Of a stretch of DNA of 25,517 nucleotides, positions 16,874 through 24,964 are shown piece by piece. The stretch comes from a virus. Where the stretch lies: positions 1 to 25,517 of the IMG/VR virus record IMGVR_UViG_3300010885_053547; one strand, written 5' to 3'. Under the pieces are notes generated by a model. The model searched no databases. It was not told the DNA's origin and saw only the letters and a list, made by a program, of their open reading frames with translations. How positions within the stretch are numbered: position 1 is the first letter of the stretch; every line of letters begins with the position of its first letter. The position numbers and the translations under genes were made by a program.

Positions 16874-19800
16874 ATGATACTAGATTTTGATTATGTCTAT
16901 GACAAATATAATTTGAATGTTTCTGGACTCCTTCATATTGGCGGACATTATGGTGGTGAGTTGCAGAAATATAAGTCTCATAATATAAACAATATTGTTT
17001 TGTTTGAACCATTATCTTCAAACTTTTTAGTACTAAGTGAGGCAGTAAAGAATATTGGTGGAAATATTGTTGCCCATCAAGTTGCTCTTGGGAATGATAA
17101 CCGAAAGGTTACAATGAACATCAGTAGCAATGAGGCACAGAGTAGTTCTATTCTCACTCCAAAGGTTCATCTGACTGCACATCCAGAAGTTTCTTTTTCT
17201 GGAACTGAAGAAGTTGAGATGAAGAAACTTGATGATTATGATTATAAAGATTATAATATGATCGTTGTCGATGTTCAGGGATACGAACTTGAAGTTCTGA
17301 AAGGAGCATCTCAAACATTGCACAATATCGATTACATTTATTGTGAAGTTAATCGTGATGAAGTTTATGAAGGTAATGCAAGAGTAGAAGAAATTGATGA
17401 GTTTCTTTCTACTTATGGATTTAAAAGAGTAGAAACTCAATGGTATTATACTGAGGTATGGGGGGATGCTTTGTACATGAAAGAAAAAAAATCTAGCCCT
17501 AATGTTTCATTAATTTGTGTATGTAAGAATCGTCTTGAGTCTCTTAGAGTTTCTTTAAGTTCTTGGTTACTTTTTGATTCAATTAAAGAAATTATTATTA
17601 TAGATTGGGATTCTGAAAAACCAATTCATAATTTGACTCAGTGGGATCCTAGAATCAAAGTGATTCATGTGAATAATAAAAAATATTTTAATTTAGCACA
17701 ACCACTGAATCTTGCCGCAAGTCAGGCAACTGGAGATTATATTTTGAAGGTTGATACTGATTATATAATAAATCCATATTATAATTTCTTAGAATCTTAT
17801 TCAATTGATGAAACTTGTTTTGTGAGCGGTGCTCACGATGCTCCAGATTTGGTTTATGATATTAATGAAGGTGGAGAATATGCCGTAGATATGGCGAAGA
17901 ATGAATTTATGAATGTTGTTGATTATGTGAATTGTTTCAGTCACTACTTCAGATATTTGAGAGGAATGCTTTATGTATCAAGAGATAATTTTTTAAGAGT
18001 AAATGGATATGATGAATCAATTCATACTTATGGATTTGAAGATGGCGATATGGAAACCAGACTCAAATCATTGGGATTAACACATAAGAAGATTTCTTAC
18101 GATCATTCTTTAATTCATATCCCACATTCCGATAAGAAAAGAATAGAAAATTGTAAGTATGATTTGCATGATGAAAAGGAAATAAGATATAATCTTTCTC
18201 ATTTCTATAGTGGAGATATACTAGAAGCACAAACTTATTATGGAGTTGTAAGTCGTTTAGTGCAAAAAAATGGAGATGTTTCTAGAAGAAAAGGACGTAA
18301 AATAACTTGGAAAATTAATCAGATTGACGATCAAAACTATGTTGCTGAAGATACAATTATGTTAAAATTAAAAGAATTTCCATCTGTTAATTATGTAAGT
18401 CTTGAAGAAAGTACAGATCGTCAAACAACTCTTGTAAATCAATTCTATGAACATGGAATTACTAATATCAATTCTGTGATTTCAAAAAGATTTGCAGAAT
18501 CAAATGATGTAGTTACTGGTAAGTATGCTTATACTCTGAATGATGGCACAAAAGGATGTGTAGTATCTCATCTTAAAGCAATCAAAAACTGGTATGAGAA
18601 TACTGATGAAGACTATGGATTCTTCTGTGAGGATGATCTGAGTCTTGAAACTATTCAGTACTGGAACTTTACATGGGAAGAATTTATTAAAAAAATTCCT
18701 TTGGATGCTGAGTGTGTTCAACTTCTTACTATTCGTGGTGACTTTGAAACCTTTGAACTCCGTGAGAGGCAGTGGAATGATTGGGCAGCAACAGCATATA
18801 TTATCACTAGAGATTATGCGAAGATGTTAATTGATACTTACATTCGAAATAATACTTATCATCTTGAGGTGCCAAATTCTGAGGTAATGCCTTTGATTGA
18901 AAATATTTTATTCTCTGGTAAGACTTATACTGCTCCTTTATTTGTAGAAAATATAGAATTTAATTCTACATTTGTCGGTTCTGATGATGATGTTAATGAT
19001 GGACAAAAGAGAGATCATTATTATGCTCATGATACAGTGTTGAATTATTGGAAAGGAAATTTGCAAGAGAAGAAGATACCTAAAAGTAAATCATTTACTA
19101 TTAAACCTCGCAAACCTAAGTCAAAAATCGTTGATTGCTTTCCATATTTTAATGAGAAAGAAATTCTAGAATTGAGAATTAATTTACTTAAAGATCATGT
19201 GGATAAATTTGTAATTGTTGATGCAAATAAATCTTTTACTGGAAAAGAAAAACCATTTACATGTAAAAATACACTTAAAGAACTTGGTCTGTGGGATGAA
19301 AATAAAATTCAAGTAATTGAACTTGATTTACATTCTGATGATGATGAAATTGATTTTACTGATACTGACAGGCATTTCAATCATAATGATCCCAAATTGA
19401 TGCTAATTGGATCTCGTGAGAGGATGCAAAGAAATGCACTTCTTTCTATTGTAGATCAATTTGATGATGAAACTGTGTTTATTGTGAGTGATTGTGATGA
19501 AATAATTAATCCAGAACATCTTACTTATGTTCCTAATATTATTAGAAGTAATCCAAATATTATCTTTAAAATTCCCTTGGTATATTGTGAAGGTAGAGCA
19601 GATTTAAGATTGTTTTATGAATCAAATAATAATCCAGTTCAATGGGACTGCTCTATGTTCTTGGCGACAAAAAATCAGTTAAAAACTCATACGCCAAATG
19701 AAATTAGATCTAATTTTAATATTTCTTATCCCATTTCATATATTGGTCAATATGAAAATGAAAATTATCTAAGATATGAAGATATGGGATGGCATTTTAG

Positions 19801-21304
19801 TTGGATGGGGGATACTGATAGAAAGAAATTAAAATCTTTATCTTATAGTCATTATGATCATGAATTTGAACATATCATTTATAAAAAATGTTCTGGAAAG
19901 TTGATGGAAGAATTCATAGAAAATCATAAAGCAGAGGAAGGAAATATTAGTGTTTCTGGGCATATTGGAACGGTTATGAAAAAATATCCACAAGAAACTC
20001 TTCCTCAAATTATTTTTGATTTACCAAGAGTTAAAGAATTTTTATTGCCGAGTATTTCATCAAAATCTGAATTTGAAGAATTACTTACGAAATATTCTTT
20101 AGATACTGAAAATGCAGATCATAATTTTGCATTGGGCGTTTGGTATGAAAATCAAGGTCATACTGCACCTGCACTTTCATATTATCTAAGATGTGCTGAG
20201 CGAGCAGAAGATGAAGATCTTGCTTACGAGGCTTTAATTCGCGGATCTTATTGTTATGAAAAACAAGGAACAAGAGATGGAAGTTCAAGATCTATGTTGT
20301 GGCAAGCACAAGCGTTTCTTCCTCACCGCCCAGAAGCATATTTTCTTCTCAGTCGTTTTGCTGAAAGAAGAGATTGGTGGCAAGATTGTTATCTAAATGC
20401 TGATTTAGCTCTTAGGTATTGTAGATTTGATTGTAAATCTTTGAGAACTGATATAGAATATCCAGGAAAATATGGACTTCTCTATGAAAAATCAGTTGCC
20501 AGCTGGTGGTGGGGTAAGGGAAAAGAAACCAGACAACTTCTTCAGGAAATCAAGGAAAATTATGAACTTACTCCAGAATATTATGATATTATAGGAAAAA
20601 AACTGATGGGATATGCCAGTGGACATGTTCCTGAAGAAGAAATTAAATATAATAAAAGTAGATATGGTGATTTTAGATTTGAATTTGATGGATTAGAAAG
20701 AATTGAAAGGAATTATTCTCAAGCATTTCAAGATATGTTTATTCTTTCTTTACTTAATGGTAAGAAAAATGGACTTTACTTAGAAATAGGAGCACAAGAA
20801 CCTTTCTTCCAAAATAATACTGCACTTTTAGAAACTGAATATGATTGGAAAGGTATTTCTATAGAGATTAGGGAAGATCTTTGTAATATGTTTAGACAGC
20901 AGAGGAAAAATTCTATTGTTTGTCAAGATGCAACTACAATCGATTATACATATTTGTTAGATGAATTTGGACAAGGAAATGTTTTTGATTATTTGCAGAT
21001 TGATTGTGAACCATCAAAAACAACCTTTGAGATTCTTCTCATGATTCCATTTGAAAAATACCAGTTTGGTATTATTACTTATGAGCATGATCATTATGTA
21101 GATATGACCAATTCTTATAGAAACAAGTCAAGGGAATATTTGGAATCAAAGGGATATAAACTCATTGTAACGAACATTTCTGCTAATGAGTTCTGCCCAT
21201 TTGAGGATTGGTGGTATCATCCAGATCTAATTGATCAAGAAATGGTAAATAAGATGAAAAATATTTCTGATGTCACTGATGTTAGAAAATACATGTTCAA
21301 TTAA
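16874..21304 (+). CDS. Giant multidomain protein: FkbM - GT2 - GT25-like - GT17-like - TPR-like - methyltransferase
   Basis: The 1476 aa are in one open frame with no stops or shifts. Domains by residue: (1) ~15-200, FkbM-type methyltransferase (GLLHIGGHYG; VVDVQGYELEVLKG 131-144). (2) ~211-425, GT2 (ICVCKNR; VDTD 293-296; FEDGDMETR 388-396). (3) ~505-700, GT25/LPS-glycosyltransferase-like (VNYVSLEESTDRQ; GCVVSHLKAIKNW; CEDDLS 585-590). (4) ~750-1010, GT17-like (IVDCFPYFNE; VSDCDEIINP 871-880 with DCD; GWHFSWMG). (5) ~1075-1250, helical TPR-like repeats (NFALGVWYENQGHTAPALSY). (6) ~1278-1440, a second methyltransferase-like domain (YLEIGAQEP 1302-1310; YLQIDCE). It probably performs several successive additions and methylations on one glycan. 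The order of domains 1-2 repeats the two preceding genes. Confidence 0.8.
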   Translation: MILDFDYVYDKYNLNVSGLLHIGGHYGGELQKYKSHNINNIVLFEPLSSNFLVLSEAVKNIGGNIVAHQVALGNDNRKVTMNISSNEAQSSSILTPKVHLTAHPEVSFSGTEEVEMKKLDDYDYKDYNMIVVDVQGYELEVLKGASQTLHNIDYIYCEVNRDEVYEGNARVEEIDEFLSTYGFKRVETQWYYTEVWGDALYMKEKKSSPNVSLICVCKNRLESLRVSLSSWLLFDSIKEIIIIDWDSEKPIHNLTQWDPRIKVIHVNNKKYFNLAQPLNLAASQATGDYILKVDTDYIINPYYNFLESYSIDETCFVSGAHDAPDLVYDINEGGEYAVDMAKNEFMNVVDYVNCFSHYFRYLRGMLYVSRDNFLRVNGYDESIHTYGFEDGDMETRLKSLGLTHKKISYDHSLIHIPHSDKKRIENCKYDLHDEKEIRYNLSHFYSGDILEAQTYYGVVSRLVQKNGDVSRRKGRKITWKINQIDDQNYVAEDTIMLKLKEFPSVNYVSLEESTDRQTTLVNQFYEHGITNINSVISKRFAESNDVVTGKYAYTLNDGTKGCVVSHLKAIKNWYENTDEDYGFFCEDDLSLETIQYWNFTWEEFIKKIPLDAECVQLLTIRGDFETFELRERQWNDWAATAYIITRDYAKMLIDTYIRNNTYHLEVPNSEVMPLIENILFSGKTYTAPLFVENIEFNSTFVGSDDDVNDGQKRDHYYAHDTVLNYWKGNLQEKKIPKSKSFTIKPRKPKSKIVDCFPYFNEKEILELRINLLKDHVDKFVIVDANKSFTGKEKPFTCKNTLKELGLWDENKIQVIELDLHSDDDEIDFTDTDRHFNHNDPKLMLIGSRERMQRNALLSIVDQFDDETVFIVSDCDEIINPEHLTYVPNIIRSNPNIIFKIPLVYCEGRADLRLFYESNNNPVQWDCSMFLATKNQLKTHTPNEIRSNFNISYPISYIGQYENENYLRYEDMGWHFSWMGDTDRKKLKSLSYSHYDHEFEHIIYKKCSGKLMEEFIENHKAEEGNISVSGHIGTVMKKYPQETLPQIIFDLPRVKEFLLPSISSKSEFEELLTKYSLDTENADHNFALGVWYENQGHTAPALSYYLRCAERAEDEDLAYEALIRGSYCYEKQGTRDGSSRSMLWQAQAFLPHRPEAYFLLSRFAERRDWWQDCYLNADLALRYCRFDCKSLRTDIEYPGKYGLLYEKSVASWWWGKGKETRQLLQEIKENYELTPEYYDIIGKKLMGYASGHVPEEEIKYNKSRYGDFRFEFDGLERIERNYSQAFQDMFILSLLNGKKNGLYLEIGAQEPFFQNNTALLETEYDWKGISIEIREDLCNMFRQQRKNSIVCQDATTIDYTYLLDEFGQGNVFDYLQIDCEPSKTTFEILLMIPFEKYQFGIITYEHDHYVDMTNSYRNKSREYLESKGYKLIVTNISANEFCPFEDWWYHPDLIDQEMVNKMKNISDVTDVRKYMFN

Positions 21305-23035: not shown

Positions 23036-24508
23036 ATGAAATCGTTTAATCAATTTTTGCAAGAATCATATTTGAATGAAGAACCTGCTGGTAGACCAAT
23101 GAAGAAAAGAAAACCTGGTGGACCAACATATGAACAAGAAATGCAAAAAATAAACGCTAGAGAGGCTGAGGCGGCGGCAAGAAAAGCACAGAGGGGTCCA
23201 ACAGGTGCTGCTGCGGATTCTACGACACAATTTAGACGACAGGGAACTACTACTAATGTTTCTGGACCAGATGTGAGGGGGGGAACTGAAAAGGCGGGGG
23301 CATTAGCATTAAGGCCAGAACCTGGTGCATTAGCAAAAACGCCAAAGTCTTCTGGTGCATTAGAAAAAACATCAAAATCTGGTATTAGGGGAGAAAATGG
23401 AACAGGTGGTGAAATGGTAAAGGCACAAGAACCTGGTAAATTAGCACGTTCTACTGGTAGGAATCCGAGTATTCCAGATGCTATGCTGAGAGGAGCACAA
23501 GATGCTGCAAATAAACCTCCTGCCACACCTAAACCTCCTGCTTCTACACCTACTAAACCTTCTTCTTCTGTAGGAAAACCACCAGCACTTTCTTCAACCA
23601 ATGCGAGAAGGGCAGCTGCAGAAGCAAAGAAAGCAGCAGCAAAGGCTGGAAGTGGTCCAGGCGGAAAAGCAATCGTCACTCCAGCACCATCTTCTGGTCC
23701 AGGTGGCGGCCCTGGAGGTGGCGGCCCTGGCGGTGGCGGCCCTGGAGGTGGCGGCCCTGGAGGTGGCGGCCCTGGCGGTGGCGGCCCAAAACCACCAACT
23801 GGACCAAAATTAAAAGTTCCTGCAGGTGCTAAAAAAGCACTTAGAATTGGTGGTAAATTACTGGGCCCAGCGGCCGCTGCTCTTGATGTTGCCGATGAGA
23901 GATCAAAGGGATCTGGATGGTTAAGATCATTGGCAAAAGGTGCCGTAGTTGCCGCTGGTGGTGCCGCTGGTGGTGCTGCTGGAACTGCTGCTGGTCCAGT
24001 TGGAACATTTGCTGGTGCTACAGGTGGTGCGATGGCAGCATCTAAGGCATTTGATGTTGTTGCTGGAAAGAATGCAAGAGAAAGAGCAGCAGATAGAATG
24101 GCGAATCGCCAAAGACAAGCAGGAACTGCTGTTAAAGGTATTGGTGGTAAAACTACATTCAGTCAAACCAAACCAGGTGGTGCTGGATTCATGTCAACTG
24201 GTTCTGGATCACAAAGAAAAACAGTTCAACTTGCCAAGACTGGTGTAGTTCAACGAGGTGGACAATCTGTTGCGGGTCATCTTGCATTCAAGACAGATTC
24301 GAAAGGTCAAAAACAAGCAGTCTATAAGGCACCACCTGCTCCTGGAACTGGAACTAAAAATCCATTAGAAAGAATTGGTAGATCTTTATTTAAAGGTGCT
24401 TATAAGCAATCTGATGCCGCGAATGCTGCTAGAAACCTTGCTGCTGCAAGACAGAATGATGCTAATCGCCAAAAAGCACTTGGAGTCAAGTTCGGTCCTG
24501 GTAAATAA
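23036..24508 (+). CDS. Gly/Ala/Pro-rich candidate internal head (capsid-targeted) protein
   Basis: The 490 aa start MKSFNQFLQESYLNE, which resembles the capsid-targeting sequence of T4 internal proteins (MKTYQEFIAEA in IpIII). Residues ~15-215 are low-complexity, basic, Ala/Pro/Thr-rich and disordered. Residues ~222-250 are a (Gly)n-Pro repeat. Residues ~265-345 are Gly/Ala-rich and mildly hydrophobic (KLLGPAAAALDVADE; GAVVAAGGAAGGAAGTAAGP), resembling glycine-zipper segments that can insert in membranes. The C-terminal ~130 residues are basic. The expression setting (late promoter, own transcript) and the N-terminus suggest a protein packaged in the head and possibly ejected with DNA. The function is inferred. 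Confidence 0.6.
   Translation: MKSFNQFLQESYLNEEPAGRPMKKRKPGGPTYEQEMQKINAREAEAAARKAQRGPTGAAADSTTQFRRQGTTTNVSGPDVRGGTEKAGALALRPEPGALAKTPKSSGALEKTSKSGIRGENGTGGEMVKAQEPGKLARSTGRNPSIPDAMLRGAQDAANKPPATPKPPASTPTKPSSSVGKPPALSSTNARRAAAEAKKAAAKAGSGPGGKAIVTPAPSSGPGGGPGGGGPGGGGPGGGGPGGGGPGGGGPKPPTGPKLKVPAGAKKALRIGGKLLGPAAAALDVADERSKGSGWLRSLAKGAVVAAGGAAGGAAGTAAGPVGTFAGATGGAMAASKAFDVVAGKNARERAADRMANRQRQAGTAVKGIGGKTTFSQTKPGGAGFMSTGSGSQRKTVQLAKTGVVQRGGQSVAGHLAFKTDSKGQKQAVYKAPPAPGTGTKNPLERIGRSLFKGAYKQSDAANAARNLAAARQNDANRQKALGVKFGPGK
23698..23787 (+). repeat. GC-rich 15-nt minisatellite (GGPGG coding)
   Basis: About six copies of GG(A/C)GGTGGCGGCCCT encode Pro followed by four Gly. The copies differ only at the third base of one Gly codon, which alternates A/C. 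The segment is far more GC-rich than the surrounding genome, so it is probably expanded by slippage. Confidence 0.9.
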
Positions 24509-24534: not shown

Positions 24535-24564
24535 TTGACTAAATATTCACAATGAGGTTATAAT
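24535..24564 (+). promoter_or_regulatory. Sigma70-type promoter (TTGACT - 18 nt - TATAAT)
   Basis: TTGACT at 24535-24540 and a perfect TATAAT at 24559-24564 are 18 nt apart. Transcription would start near 24571, exactly at the first base of the riboswitch-like element. This indicates an early or host-polymerase-driven promoter. Confidence 0.85.
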
Positions 24565-24571
24565 ACCTCTA

Positions 24572-24612
24572 CGTTCAACCCATAAGGGTCGGAAGTAAGC
24601 CGACGTGGAACG
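24572..24612 (+). ncRNA. Glutamine riboswitch aptamer (Downstream-peptide / glnA RNA class)
   Basis: The pieces are in the order expected for the class. CGTTC (24572-24576) pairs with GAACG (24608-24612) as P1. ACCC-ATAA-GGGT (24578-24589) is a short P2 hairpin. GGAAGTAAGC (24591-24600) is the conserved core, and CGG/CCG around it can form a third helix. RNAs of the glnA and Downstream-peptide classes bind L-glutamine and are found in cyanobacteria and cyanophages. The location 7 nt after the -10 box and before a micro-ORF fits the Downstream-peptide type. Ligand identity here is inferred from the class. Confidence 0.75.
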
Positions 24613-24624
24613 GATCGTTCATCT

Positions 24625-24777
24625 ATGGAAACACTCTTACTCAGTTGTCTTCAGGCACAATTGATTATTGGAAGAGTTATGAAGGCAAATATGCCTCCAC
24701 AAACTCGTAATAATTTAATTTGGGAAATCAAACAGATTACTCCCAAAGGGTGTAAAATAGACGCAACCGCCGACTGA
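24625..24777 (+). CDS. 50-aa micro-ORF behind the riboswitch
   Basis: METLLLSCLQAQLIIGRVMK begins the product, followed by PPQTRNNLIWEIKQITPKGCKIDATAD. The first half is a hydrophobic/amphipathic helix and the second is polar. The ATG is 12 nt after the aptamer P1 strand. A weak GGAACGGA lies upstream and overlaps both P1 and an alternative hairpin, so translation could be controlled by RNA folding. The residue composition looks coding and the type of product fits the 'downstream peptide' of this RNA class. Function unknown. Confidence 0.65.
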   Translation: METLLLSCLQAQLIIGRVMKANMPPQTRNNLIWEIKQITPKGCKIDATAD

Positions 24778-24817
24778 AGGAACGCTCTTTAACCTAAACC
24801 CCTAAGGAGAAAACCTA

Positions 24818-24931
24818 ATGTCACAAGTAAAAGTAAAAACTAATAATAACTGGCAACTTGTTCTAATCAAAAAACAAAAAGAGAAAGAACAACGCGAACA
24901 TCAAGCAAAACTAGCAATGGCGATGCGCTGA
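24818..24931 (+). CDS. 37-aa basic micro-ORF
   Basis: AAGGAG at 24804-24809 lies 8 nt before ATG 24818, an excellent initiation site. The product (MSQVKVKTNNNWQLVLIKKQ, then a Lys/Glu/Gln-rich helix ending AKLAMAMR) is small, basic and probably helical. It is followed 6 nt later by a terminator, so it closes the riboswitch transcript. In cyanobacteria some glutamine riboswitches control small basic inhibitors of glutamine synthetase (IF7/IF17). No clear sequence match to them is visible, so a similar role is only a hypothesis. Confidence 0.65.
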   Translation: MSQVKVKTNNNWQLVLIKKQKEKEQREHQAKLAMAMR

Positions 24932-24937
24932 TATTCT

Positions 24938-24964
24938 AGGAGGGATTGATTCCCTCCTTTTTTT
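24938..24964 (+). terminator. Rho-independent terminator
   Basis: AGGAGGGA-TTGAT-TCCCTCCT is a perfect 8-bp GC-rich stem with a 5-nt loop followed by a T run. It ends the riboswitch/micro-ORF transcript. Confidence 0.93.

What the first reader, a model, noticed from the sequence alone, without database searches (positions are those of the whole stretch)
24572..24784. Competing CGTTC/GAACG pairings: a possible built-in expression platform for a phage glutamine riboswitch
The aptamer P1 strand GAACG (24608-24612) is complementary to two CGTTC copies: 24572-24576 (aptamer P1) and 24616-24620, only three bases downstream. The second pairing would form a small hairpin just before the micro-ORF ATG (24625) and cover the weak GGAACGGA ribosome site. 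A fourth element, GAACG at 24780-24784 in GACTGAAGGAACGC right after the micro-ORF stop, can also pair with the second CGTTC, enclosing the whole ORF. The sequence shows two copies of each strand, giving mutually exclusive folds. The GATCGTTCATC and GAAGGAACGC flanks also resemble the termini of the glnA-class aptamer, so the ORF could sit inside a second, degenerate aptamer.
Basis: partly seen in the sequence, partly recalled or inferred. Interest (0 to 1): 0.75.

Follow-up and report, generated by a model that had tools for sequence, protein, structure and literature searches.

The report
Nested glutamine riboswitch enclosing a gene
A cyanophage RNA switch that probably senses glutamine is built from two binding cores folded one inside the other, with a small protein gene sitting in a loop of the inner core, so the switch and the gene it encloses probably cannot both be in use at once.

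Summary
The four CGTTC/GAACG strands are real and at the stated coordinates. They are not mainly competing copies of one P1. In 171 complete relatives they form a nested structure. The first CGTTC (24572-24576) pairs with the last GAACG (24780-24784), closing an outer glutamine-I (glnA) core. The middle two strands (24608-24612, 24616-24620) pair with each other, forming P1 of an inner, circularly permuted core. Both cores share one long-range P3 helix. Support: compensatory changes in outer P1, inner P1 and P3; P3 strand lengths that change together; and swaps in both 'linchpin' pairs known from the glutamine-I crystal structure. The tandem reading breaks in 68/171. The 50-aa ORF lies in the inner P2 loop. 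Its start codon overlaps P2, its likely ribosome site overlaps the inner P1 loop, and its stop codon is in the P3/loop-E junction. Relatives instead carry a plain P2 hairpin, an ORF in the outer P2, or one in each. The downstream gene is usually DUF4278-like. Likely mechanism (inferred): glutamine closes both cores, shuts the internal ORF and frees the downstream gene. Binding is untested. A new variant of the glutamine-I riboswitch; I found no description in the papers I could search.

The parts
24535..24564 (+). sigma-70-like promoter TTGACT-18-TATAAT; expected start about 24571, so the RNA would begin at the outer P1
   Evidence: 11 of 12 consensus matches; similar motifs visible upstream in many relatives
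24572..24576 (+). strand 1, CGTTC: 5' strand of outer P1
   Evidence: pairs with 24780-24784; C-G to U-A double change in relatives
24578..24589 (+). P2 of the outer core, short hairpin ACCC-ATAA-GGGT
   Evidence: double changes at all four pairs; ORF-bearing in other loci
24590..24597 (+). outer J2/3 CGGAAGTA; G24591 and G24592 correspond to G22 and G23 of the crystal structure; AGTA is one half of the loop-E motif
   Evidence: Rfam alignment; G24592-C24785 linchpin covaries
24598..24605 (+). P3 5' strand AGCCGACG, shared by both cores
   Evidence: sequence and length covary with 24768-24775
24608..24612 (+). strand 2, GAACG: inner P1
   Evidence: pairs with 24616-24620; G-C to C-G double change
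24613..24615 (+). loop closing inner P1 (GAT); G24613 is the inner linchpin partner; with G24612 it gives the weak GGA ribosome site
   Evidence: C24764-G24613 covaries to G-C in L031 and L092
24616..24620 (+). strand 3, CGTTC: inner P1
24622..24626 (+). inner P2 5' strand TCTAT, includes the first two bases of the ORF start codon
   Evidence: complementary to 24757-24761; double changes at all five pairs in relatives
24625..24777 (+). 50-aa ORF inside the inner P2 loop (weakly phrog_504-like, two cysteines)
24757..24761 (+). inner P2 3' strand ATAGA (inside the ORF)
24762..24765 (+). inner J2/3 CGCA; C24764 is the inner linchpin base
24768..24775 (+). P3 3' strand CGCCGACT
24776..24779 (+). 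GAAG, second half of the loop-E motif of the outer core; its GA are the last two bases of the ORF stop codon TGA
   Evidence: stop codon at this junction in 167 of 170 ORF loci
24780..24784 (+). strand 4, GAACG: 3' strand of outer P1
24785..24785 (+). outer linchpin base (C60 equivalent), also first base of an anti-Shine-Dalgarno strand
24785..24791 (+). CUCUUUA, complementary to the downstream ribosome site UAAGGAG at 24803-24809
   Evidence: CUCUUUA or CUCUUUAA helix in 9 of 12 representatives of the group with C after the last GAACG
24818..24931 (+). downstream ORF (37 aa); relatives have a DUF4278-like (YRGV) protein here
24938..24958 (+). intrinsic terminator ending the unit

Best explanation
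A double glutamine-I (glnA-class) riboswitch in which two three-way-junction cores are nested. The outer core is made from the first and last parts of the element: outer P1 24572-24576/24780-24784, P2, CGGAAGTA, GAAG. The inner core is circularly permuted: its P1 is the hairpin 24608-24612/24616-24620 and its P2 encloses a 50-aa ORF. One P3 helix joins the two cores. The arrangement looks like a domain-swapped tandem duplication, since plain tandem and single glnA elements also exist in viral contigs. Proposed working (inferred): with little glutamine the inner P1/P2 opens, the ORF is translated, and the ribosome running to the stop codon at the P3/loop-E junction keeps the outer core unfolded; CUCUUUA then masks the downstream ribosome site. 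With glutamine both linchpin pairs (C24764-G24613 and G24592-C24785) form, the ORF's ribosome site and start codon are closed, C24785 is taken from the masking helix, and the downstream DUF4278-type gene is expressed. Shown comparatively: the fold, the ORF position and its coding nature. Inferred: ligand binding, direction of control and the toggle.
For: Outer/inner P1: fifth base of strands 1,2,3,4 is C,G,C,G in 103 sequences, C,C,G,G in 62 and T,C,G,A in 6, so nested pairs hold in 171/171 and tandem pairs in 103/171. P3: matched strand-length classes; in-register pairing 1.00 and 0.80 for the two main classes against at most 0.40 when slid. Outer linchpin Watson-Crick in 168/171, inner in 164/171; the tandem assignment gives 147 and 140. 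Tool count on 34 sequences: 96.1% of cells paired, 17 pairs with double changes against 9.5 shuffled, 0/500 shuffles as high; RNAalifold finds outer P1, inner P1, P2a and P2b unaided. Inner P2 around the ORF: first four pairs standard in at least 132/133 with 54 double changes. ORF: codon-position substitutions 33/13/54%, and a GGAG ribosome site over the inner loop in 72/170 ORF loci against 0/53 compact loci. Ligand-contact residues named in PMC11477058 and PMC6698751 are present in both cores.
Against: No binding or expression data. The inner core lacks the loop-E AGUA/GAA and may be structural only. For this window the nearest-neighbour model slightly prefers the tandem pairing. P3 has C-A and A-C mismatches at positions 3 and 6 of the 8-pair class. 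The anti-Shine-Dalgarno helix is seen only in the freshwater-like group; none of 50 representatives with G after the last GAACG has it. The inner C-G swap was itself a search pattern, although strands 1 and 4 were left free. Sequences are related; 76 clusters were used as a partial correction.
Confidence: 0.8

Rival explanations
1. Ordinary tandem glnA: two complete aptamers in a row, strand 1 with 2 and 3 with 4, the second interrupted by the ORF.
For: Each half alone gets an Rfam Glutamine hit (window first half 32.6 bits; compact second halves 33.5-37.8 bits). Tandem glnA is known (PMC2864571) and occurs in viral contigs (L150, L158). Lower nearest-neighbour energy in this window.
Against: Fifth P1 base mismatches on both sides in 68/171; the tandem linchpins mismatch in the freshwater group; the first half has AGUA without GAAGG and the second GAAGG without AGUA, unlike true tandems.
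Confidence: 0.05
2. The nested fold is right but only the outer core binds glutamine; the inner permuted unit is a structural cap on P3.
For: Inner unit lacks loop E; L146 seems to have lost inner P1 while keeping P3; inner linchpin slightly less regular (164/171).
Against: Inner P1, P2, the adenine after P1, the CG of J2/3 and the linchpin are conserved, several with compensatory changes; these match the ligand-contact residues. Glutamine-II has essentially the same binding site in a different architecture.
Confidence: 0.3
3. Fold competition: the RNA switches between pairing 1-2 and pairing 2-3, the latter hiding the ORF ribosome site.
For: All four strands are fully complementary in the window; energies within about 3.4 kcal/mol.
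Against: Strands 1 and 2 cannot pair fully in 68/171 relatives, so such a switch is not conserved.
Confidence: 0.1
4. Chance repeats around a single aptamer and an unrelated ORF.
For: The window alone shows only short 5-base strands.
Against: Same order and covariation in 171 relatives.
Confidence: 0.01

Closest known systems
Glutamine-I (glnA) riboswitch, Rfam RF01739
   Same: P1 CGUUC/GAACG, P2, CGGAAGUA, loop E AGUA/GAA, P3, linchpin G23-C60
   Different: P3 is long-range and capped by a second, circularly permuted core; ORF inside P2; below the Rfam threshold when only the local fold is scored
Tandem glnA elements (PMC2864571; L150, L158)
   Same: two glutamine-type cores before one gene
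   Different: cores are interleaved (outer/inner), strands swapped, P3 shared
Glutamine-II (Downstream-peptide), RF01704
   Same: same binding residues, C-G form of the linchpin, control of very short genes
   Different: no 3' pseudoknot helix here; three-way junction instead
Glycine tandem riboswitch
   Same: two homologous aptamers in one leader
   Different: glycine aptamers are consecutive, not nested, with no ORF inside (general knowledge)

Membership tests
Glutamine-I riboswitch RF01739 | Rfam gathering score 35 bits | tested here: not met
   32.6 bits for the local fold of the window; relatives L007 and L035 reach 37.8 and 35.5. The model's P3 loop is only a few bases, whereas here P3 encloses about 160. 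I therefore call it a variant of the class, not a threshold member.
Glutamine-I riboswitch RF01739 | P1 CGUUC/GAACG, P2 and CGGAAGUA | tested here: met
Glutamine-I riboswitch RF01739 | loop E AGUA/GAA flanking P3 | tested here: met
   AGUA abuts the P3 5' strand and GAA the P3 3' strand in the long-range fold; not met in the local fold
Glutamine-I riboswitch RF01739 | linchpin pair G23-C60 | tested here: met
   G24592-C24785; Watson-Crick in 168/171 with G-C and C-G forms
Glutamine-I riboswitch RF01739 | binds L-glutamine and controls expression | not testable with these tools
   no experiment
Tandem glnA | each half closes its own P1 and linchpin | tested here: not met
   P1 mismatched in 68/171; linchpin only 147 and 140 of 171
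Glutamine-II RF01704 | Rfam gathering score 33 bits, with a 3' pseudoknot helix | tested here: not met
   18.2 bits in the window
DUF4278 PF14105 (downstream gene) | Pfam gathering score | tested here: not met
   window ORF has no hit; relatives L008 and L010 pass with 29.0 and 30.3 bits

The most novel reading that the evidence does not exclude
The first natural circularly permuted riboswitch core, nested in a second one to give two cooperative glutamine sites joined by P3, and with protein genes carried inside the aptamer loops, so that a translating ribosome and the ligand-bound aptamer exclude each other: a two-output toggle in which the phage makes one small protein when glutamine is low and another when it is high.
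Probability: 0.4. Interest if true: 0.9.

Novelty: new variant of a known kind. Interest (0 to 1): 0.77.

Why it matters
Riboswitch aptamers normally lie before the gene they control. Here genes lie inside aptamer arms, in more than 150 viral loci and in isolates such as P-SSM2, P-SSM7, S-SRM01 and DSL-LC02; S-PM2, Bellamy and S-CREM1 carry the compact form. If the fold is right, it shows how a tandem duplication can become an interlocked two-core RNA by strand swapping, gives a ready system to test cooperativity and ribosome-aptamer competition, and ties phage gene control to the nitrogen state of marine and freshwater picocyanobacteria. It also explains why Rfam reports these elements as weak single aptamers or overlooks them.

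Tried and rejected
Plain tandem glnA: rejected by P1 and linchpin compensations. A local P3 hairpin CCG-ACN-CGG in the first half: absent in the AGTCG class and leaves loop E without its GAA strand. A kissing interaction between two tandem aptamers: would need both tandem P1s. Glutamine-II membership: 18.2 bits. rpsL_pseudo hit: chance level. Host origin: the genome scan gave mostly chance matches. A PirA identity for the downstream protein was considered but has no support here. Minimum-energy folding alone was not decisive. Two parser errors (end motif; outer P1 taken from a CGTTGA inside P2) were found and the affected rows dropped.

Full report
WHAT WAS CHECKED. The Rfam gathering scan of the window finds nothing; at relaxed threshold the first half matches Glutamine RF01739 with 32.6 bits, E 2.1e-5. 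The window is a 25.5-kb virus record. Its nearest relatives at this locus are Kyanoviridae cyanophages: DSL-LC03, DSL-LC02, S-SRM01, S-CREM1, Bellamy, P-SSM2, S-PM2 and P-SSM7.

COMPARATIVE ANATOMY. Reading the relatives side by side shows two kinds of locus. In S-CREM1, Bellamy, S-PM2 and AG-345-P14 a compact unit CGTTCA-hairpin-ACGCAAA...GAAGGAACG follows the first aptamer-like half. In the window, DSL-LC02, DSL-LC03, S-SRM01, P-SSM2 and P-SSM7 the hairpin is replaced by an ORF of about 50 codons. The first half has AGUA but no GAAGG; the second has GAAGG but no AGUA. A glnA core needs both, flanking P3 (loop E). This suggested that one core is built from the first and last parts of the element. 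The published S-CREM1 glnA annotation already spans 99 bases, i.e. the whole element (PMC9964418).

THE TEST. Viral contigs were scanned with patterns that fix only parts of the element. Of 250 non-identical loci, 171 are complete with a resolved outer P1. Fifth base of P1 strands 1,2,3,4: C,G,C,G 103; C,C,G,G 62; T,C,G,A 6. Pairs 1-4 and 2-3 hold in all; pairs 1-2 and 3-4 fail in 68. The pattern fixed strands 2 and 3 but not 1 and 4, so the constancy of pair 1-4 is a genuine result. P3 strands: AGTCG/CGACT, AGCCGACN/NGYYGACT with N complementary (T-A, G-C, A-T), GGACGG/CCGCCC, AGACGACG/CGCCGCCT, AGTCA/TGACT; strand lengths match. In-register pairing is 1.00 and 0.80 for the two main classes among cluster representatives, at most 0.40 when slid; observed pairing over all is 0.887 against a maximum of 0.801 in 2000 shuffles. 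Linchpins: the base after CG in the first half matches the base after the last GAACG (168/171), and the base after CG in the second half matches the base after the middle GAACG (164/171). In the freshwater group the four bases are G,G,C,C, which only the nested assignment pairs; L092 is C,C,G,G; L031 is G,C,G,C. On a tool-made alignment of 34 sequences with ORF interiors removed, the nested structure has 96.1% paired cells, 17 pairs with double changes and 100 such cells against 23.6 shuffled, with none of 500 shuffles as high. The tandem structure has no double change in either P1 and loses 10 of 34 cells at the fifth pair of each and 6 of 34 at each linchpin. RNAalifold, given no structure, returns outer P1, inner P1 and both P2 helices.

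THE INNER CORE. The middle hairpin, GAACG-GAT-CGTTC in the window, is P1 of a core whose open end is P3 instead of P1: a circular permutation. It keeps the adenine after P1, P2, the CG of J2/3 and the linchpin. Reviews of the structures place glutamine against G22/G23, C58, C1-G59 and the G23-C60 linchpin (PMC11477058; PMC6698751); equivalents exist in both cores. The inner core lacks loop E, so binding by it is plausible but unproven.

THE GENE INSIDE. Of 170 loci with a long inner insert, 167 have a stop codon formed by the last P3 base plus the next two bases (GA or AA) of loop E, and the start codon lies a fixed few bases after CGTT[CG]A in nearly all. The inner P2 persists around the ORF (TCCC/GGGA, TCTAT/ATAGA, TCCTCA/TGAGGA): the first four pairs are standard in at least 132 of 133, with 54 double changes; at least one start-codon base lies in that helix in 109 of 128. 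The ribosome-site-like GGAG spans the inner P1 loop in 72/170 ORF loci and 0/53 compact ones (among cluster representatives 22/63 against 0/13, p 0.015). Substitutions by codon position are 33, 13 and 54%. The 150 distinct proteins all have exactly two cysteines; most of those tested match phrog_504 or phrog_13397, function unknown; the window ORF matches phrog_504 only weakly, E 0.015. AlphaFold gives a two-helix hairpin. In 24 loci whose outer P1 lies further upstream, an ORF-sized insert sits in the outer P2 (14 of them also have the inner ORF), typically ending at AAG-TAA inside the loop-E AGUA; an ORF longer than 30 codons in that exact frame was read in 9 of the 24, the others ending by another route or not being resolved.

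DOWNSTREAM. Nearly all loci lead into a small DUF4278-like protein with YRG motifs; the window version lacks the motif. In the group with C after the last GAACG, a helix starting at that linchpin base covers the downstream ribosome site (10 of 12 representatives; CUCUUUA/UAAGGAG in the window), but in none of 50 with G there, so the marine group must use another read-out. A sigma-70-like promoter at 24535-24564 and a terminator at 24938-24958 frame the unit. Glutamine-II acts as an ON switch for a small regulator (PMC6698751), which fits the proposed direction for the downstream gene.

LIMITS. No ligand or expression data. Relatedness is only partly handled (76 clusters). Viral scans stop at 120 stretches, so frequencies are not unbiased. 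Ren 2015 and Klahn 2018 are not held and Ames and Breaker 2011 was not read, so an earlier remark on this layout cannot be excluded; searches of the held library found none.

Noticed in passing
L014, L019, L035, L048, L057, L078, L278, L349 and others: ORFs inserted in the outer P2 loop, some ending ...GRK* with TAA inside the loop-E AGUAA; several loci carry an ORF in both P2 loops.
   Followed up: partly
window 24625-24777 and 149 related ORFs: Every internal ORF has exactly two cysteines about 30-35 residues apart, suggesting a disulfide or metal site in a small helical hairpin.
   Followed up: partly
L377, L415, L429 downstream of the element: A CxxC...CxxC protein (MRQCSKCSEYKPLSSFYSQK...) resembling the start of an HNH-type mobile endonuclease follows the element, with a further GAAGGAA / CGTTCATCCCATC motif between them.
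   Followed up: no
L150 and L158: True tandem glnA aptamers, each with its own AGUA and GAAGG, in viral contigs: a possible ancestor of the nested form.
   Followed up: partly
L146: Variant that appears to have lost inner P1 but keeps P3 and the inner P2 hairpin.
   Followed up: no
L152: Inner P1 loop enlarged by an extra long hairpin.
   Followed up: no
L240 (Nonlabens xiamenensis contig NZ_RMVE01000006, 188 kb) and L255 (Prochlorococcus AG-418-C09, 189 kb): Nested elements or parts of them in 'bacterial' contigs of typical cyanophage genome length; the second has the same length as an IMG/VR phage record (L305), so both may be phage genomes in bacterial assemblies.
   Followed up: no
window 23036-24508: 490-aa ORF with a long GGPGGGGPGGGG repeat and no Pfam or PHROG match.
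   Followed up: no
window 16874-21304: 1476-aa ORF that looks like several glycosyltransferase and methyltransferase domains joined together.
   Followed up: no
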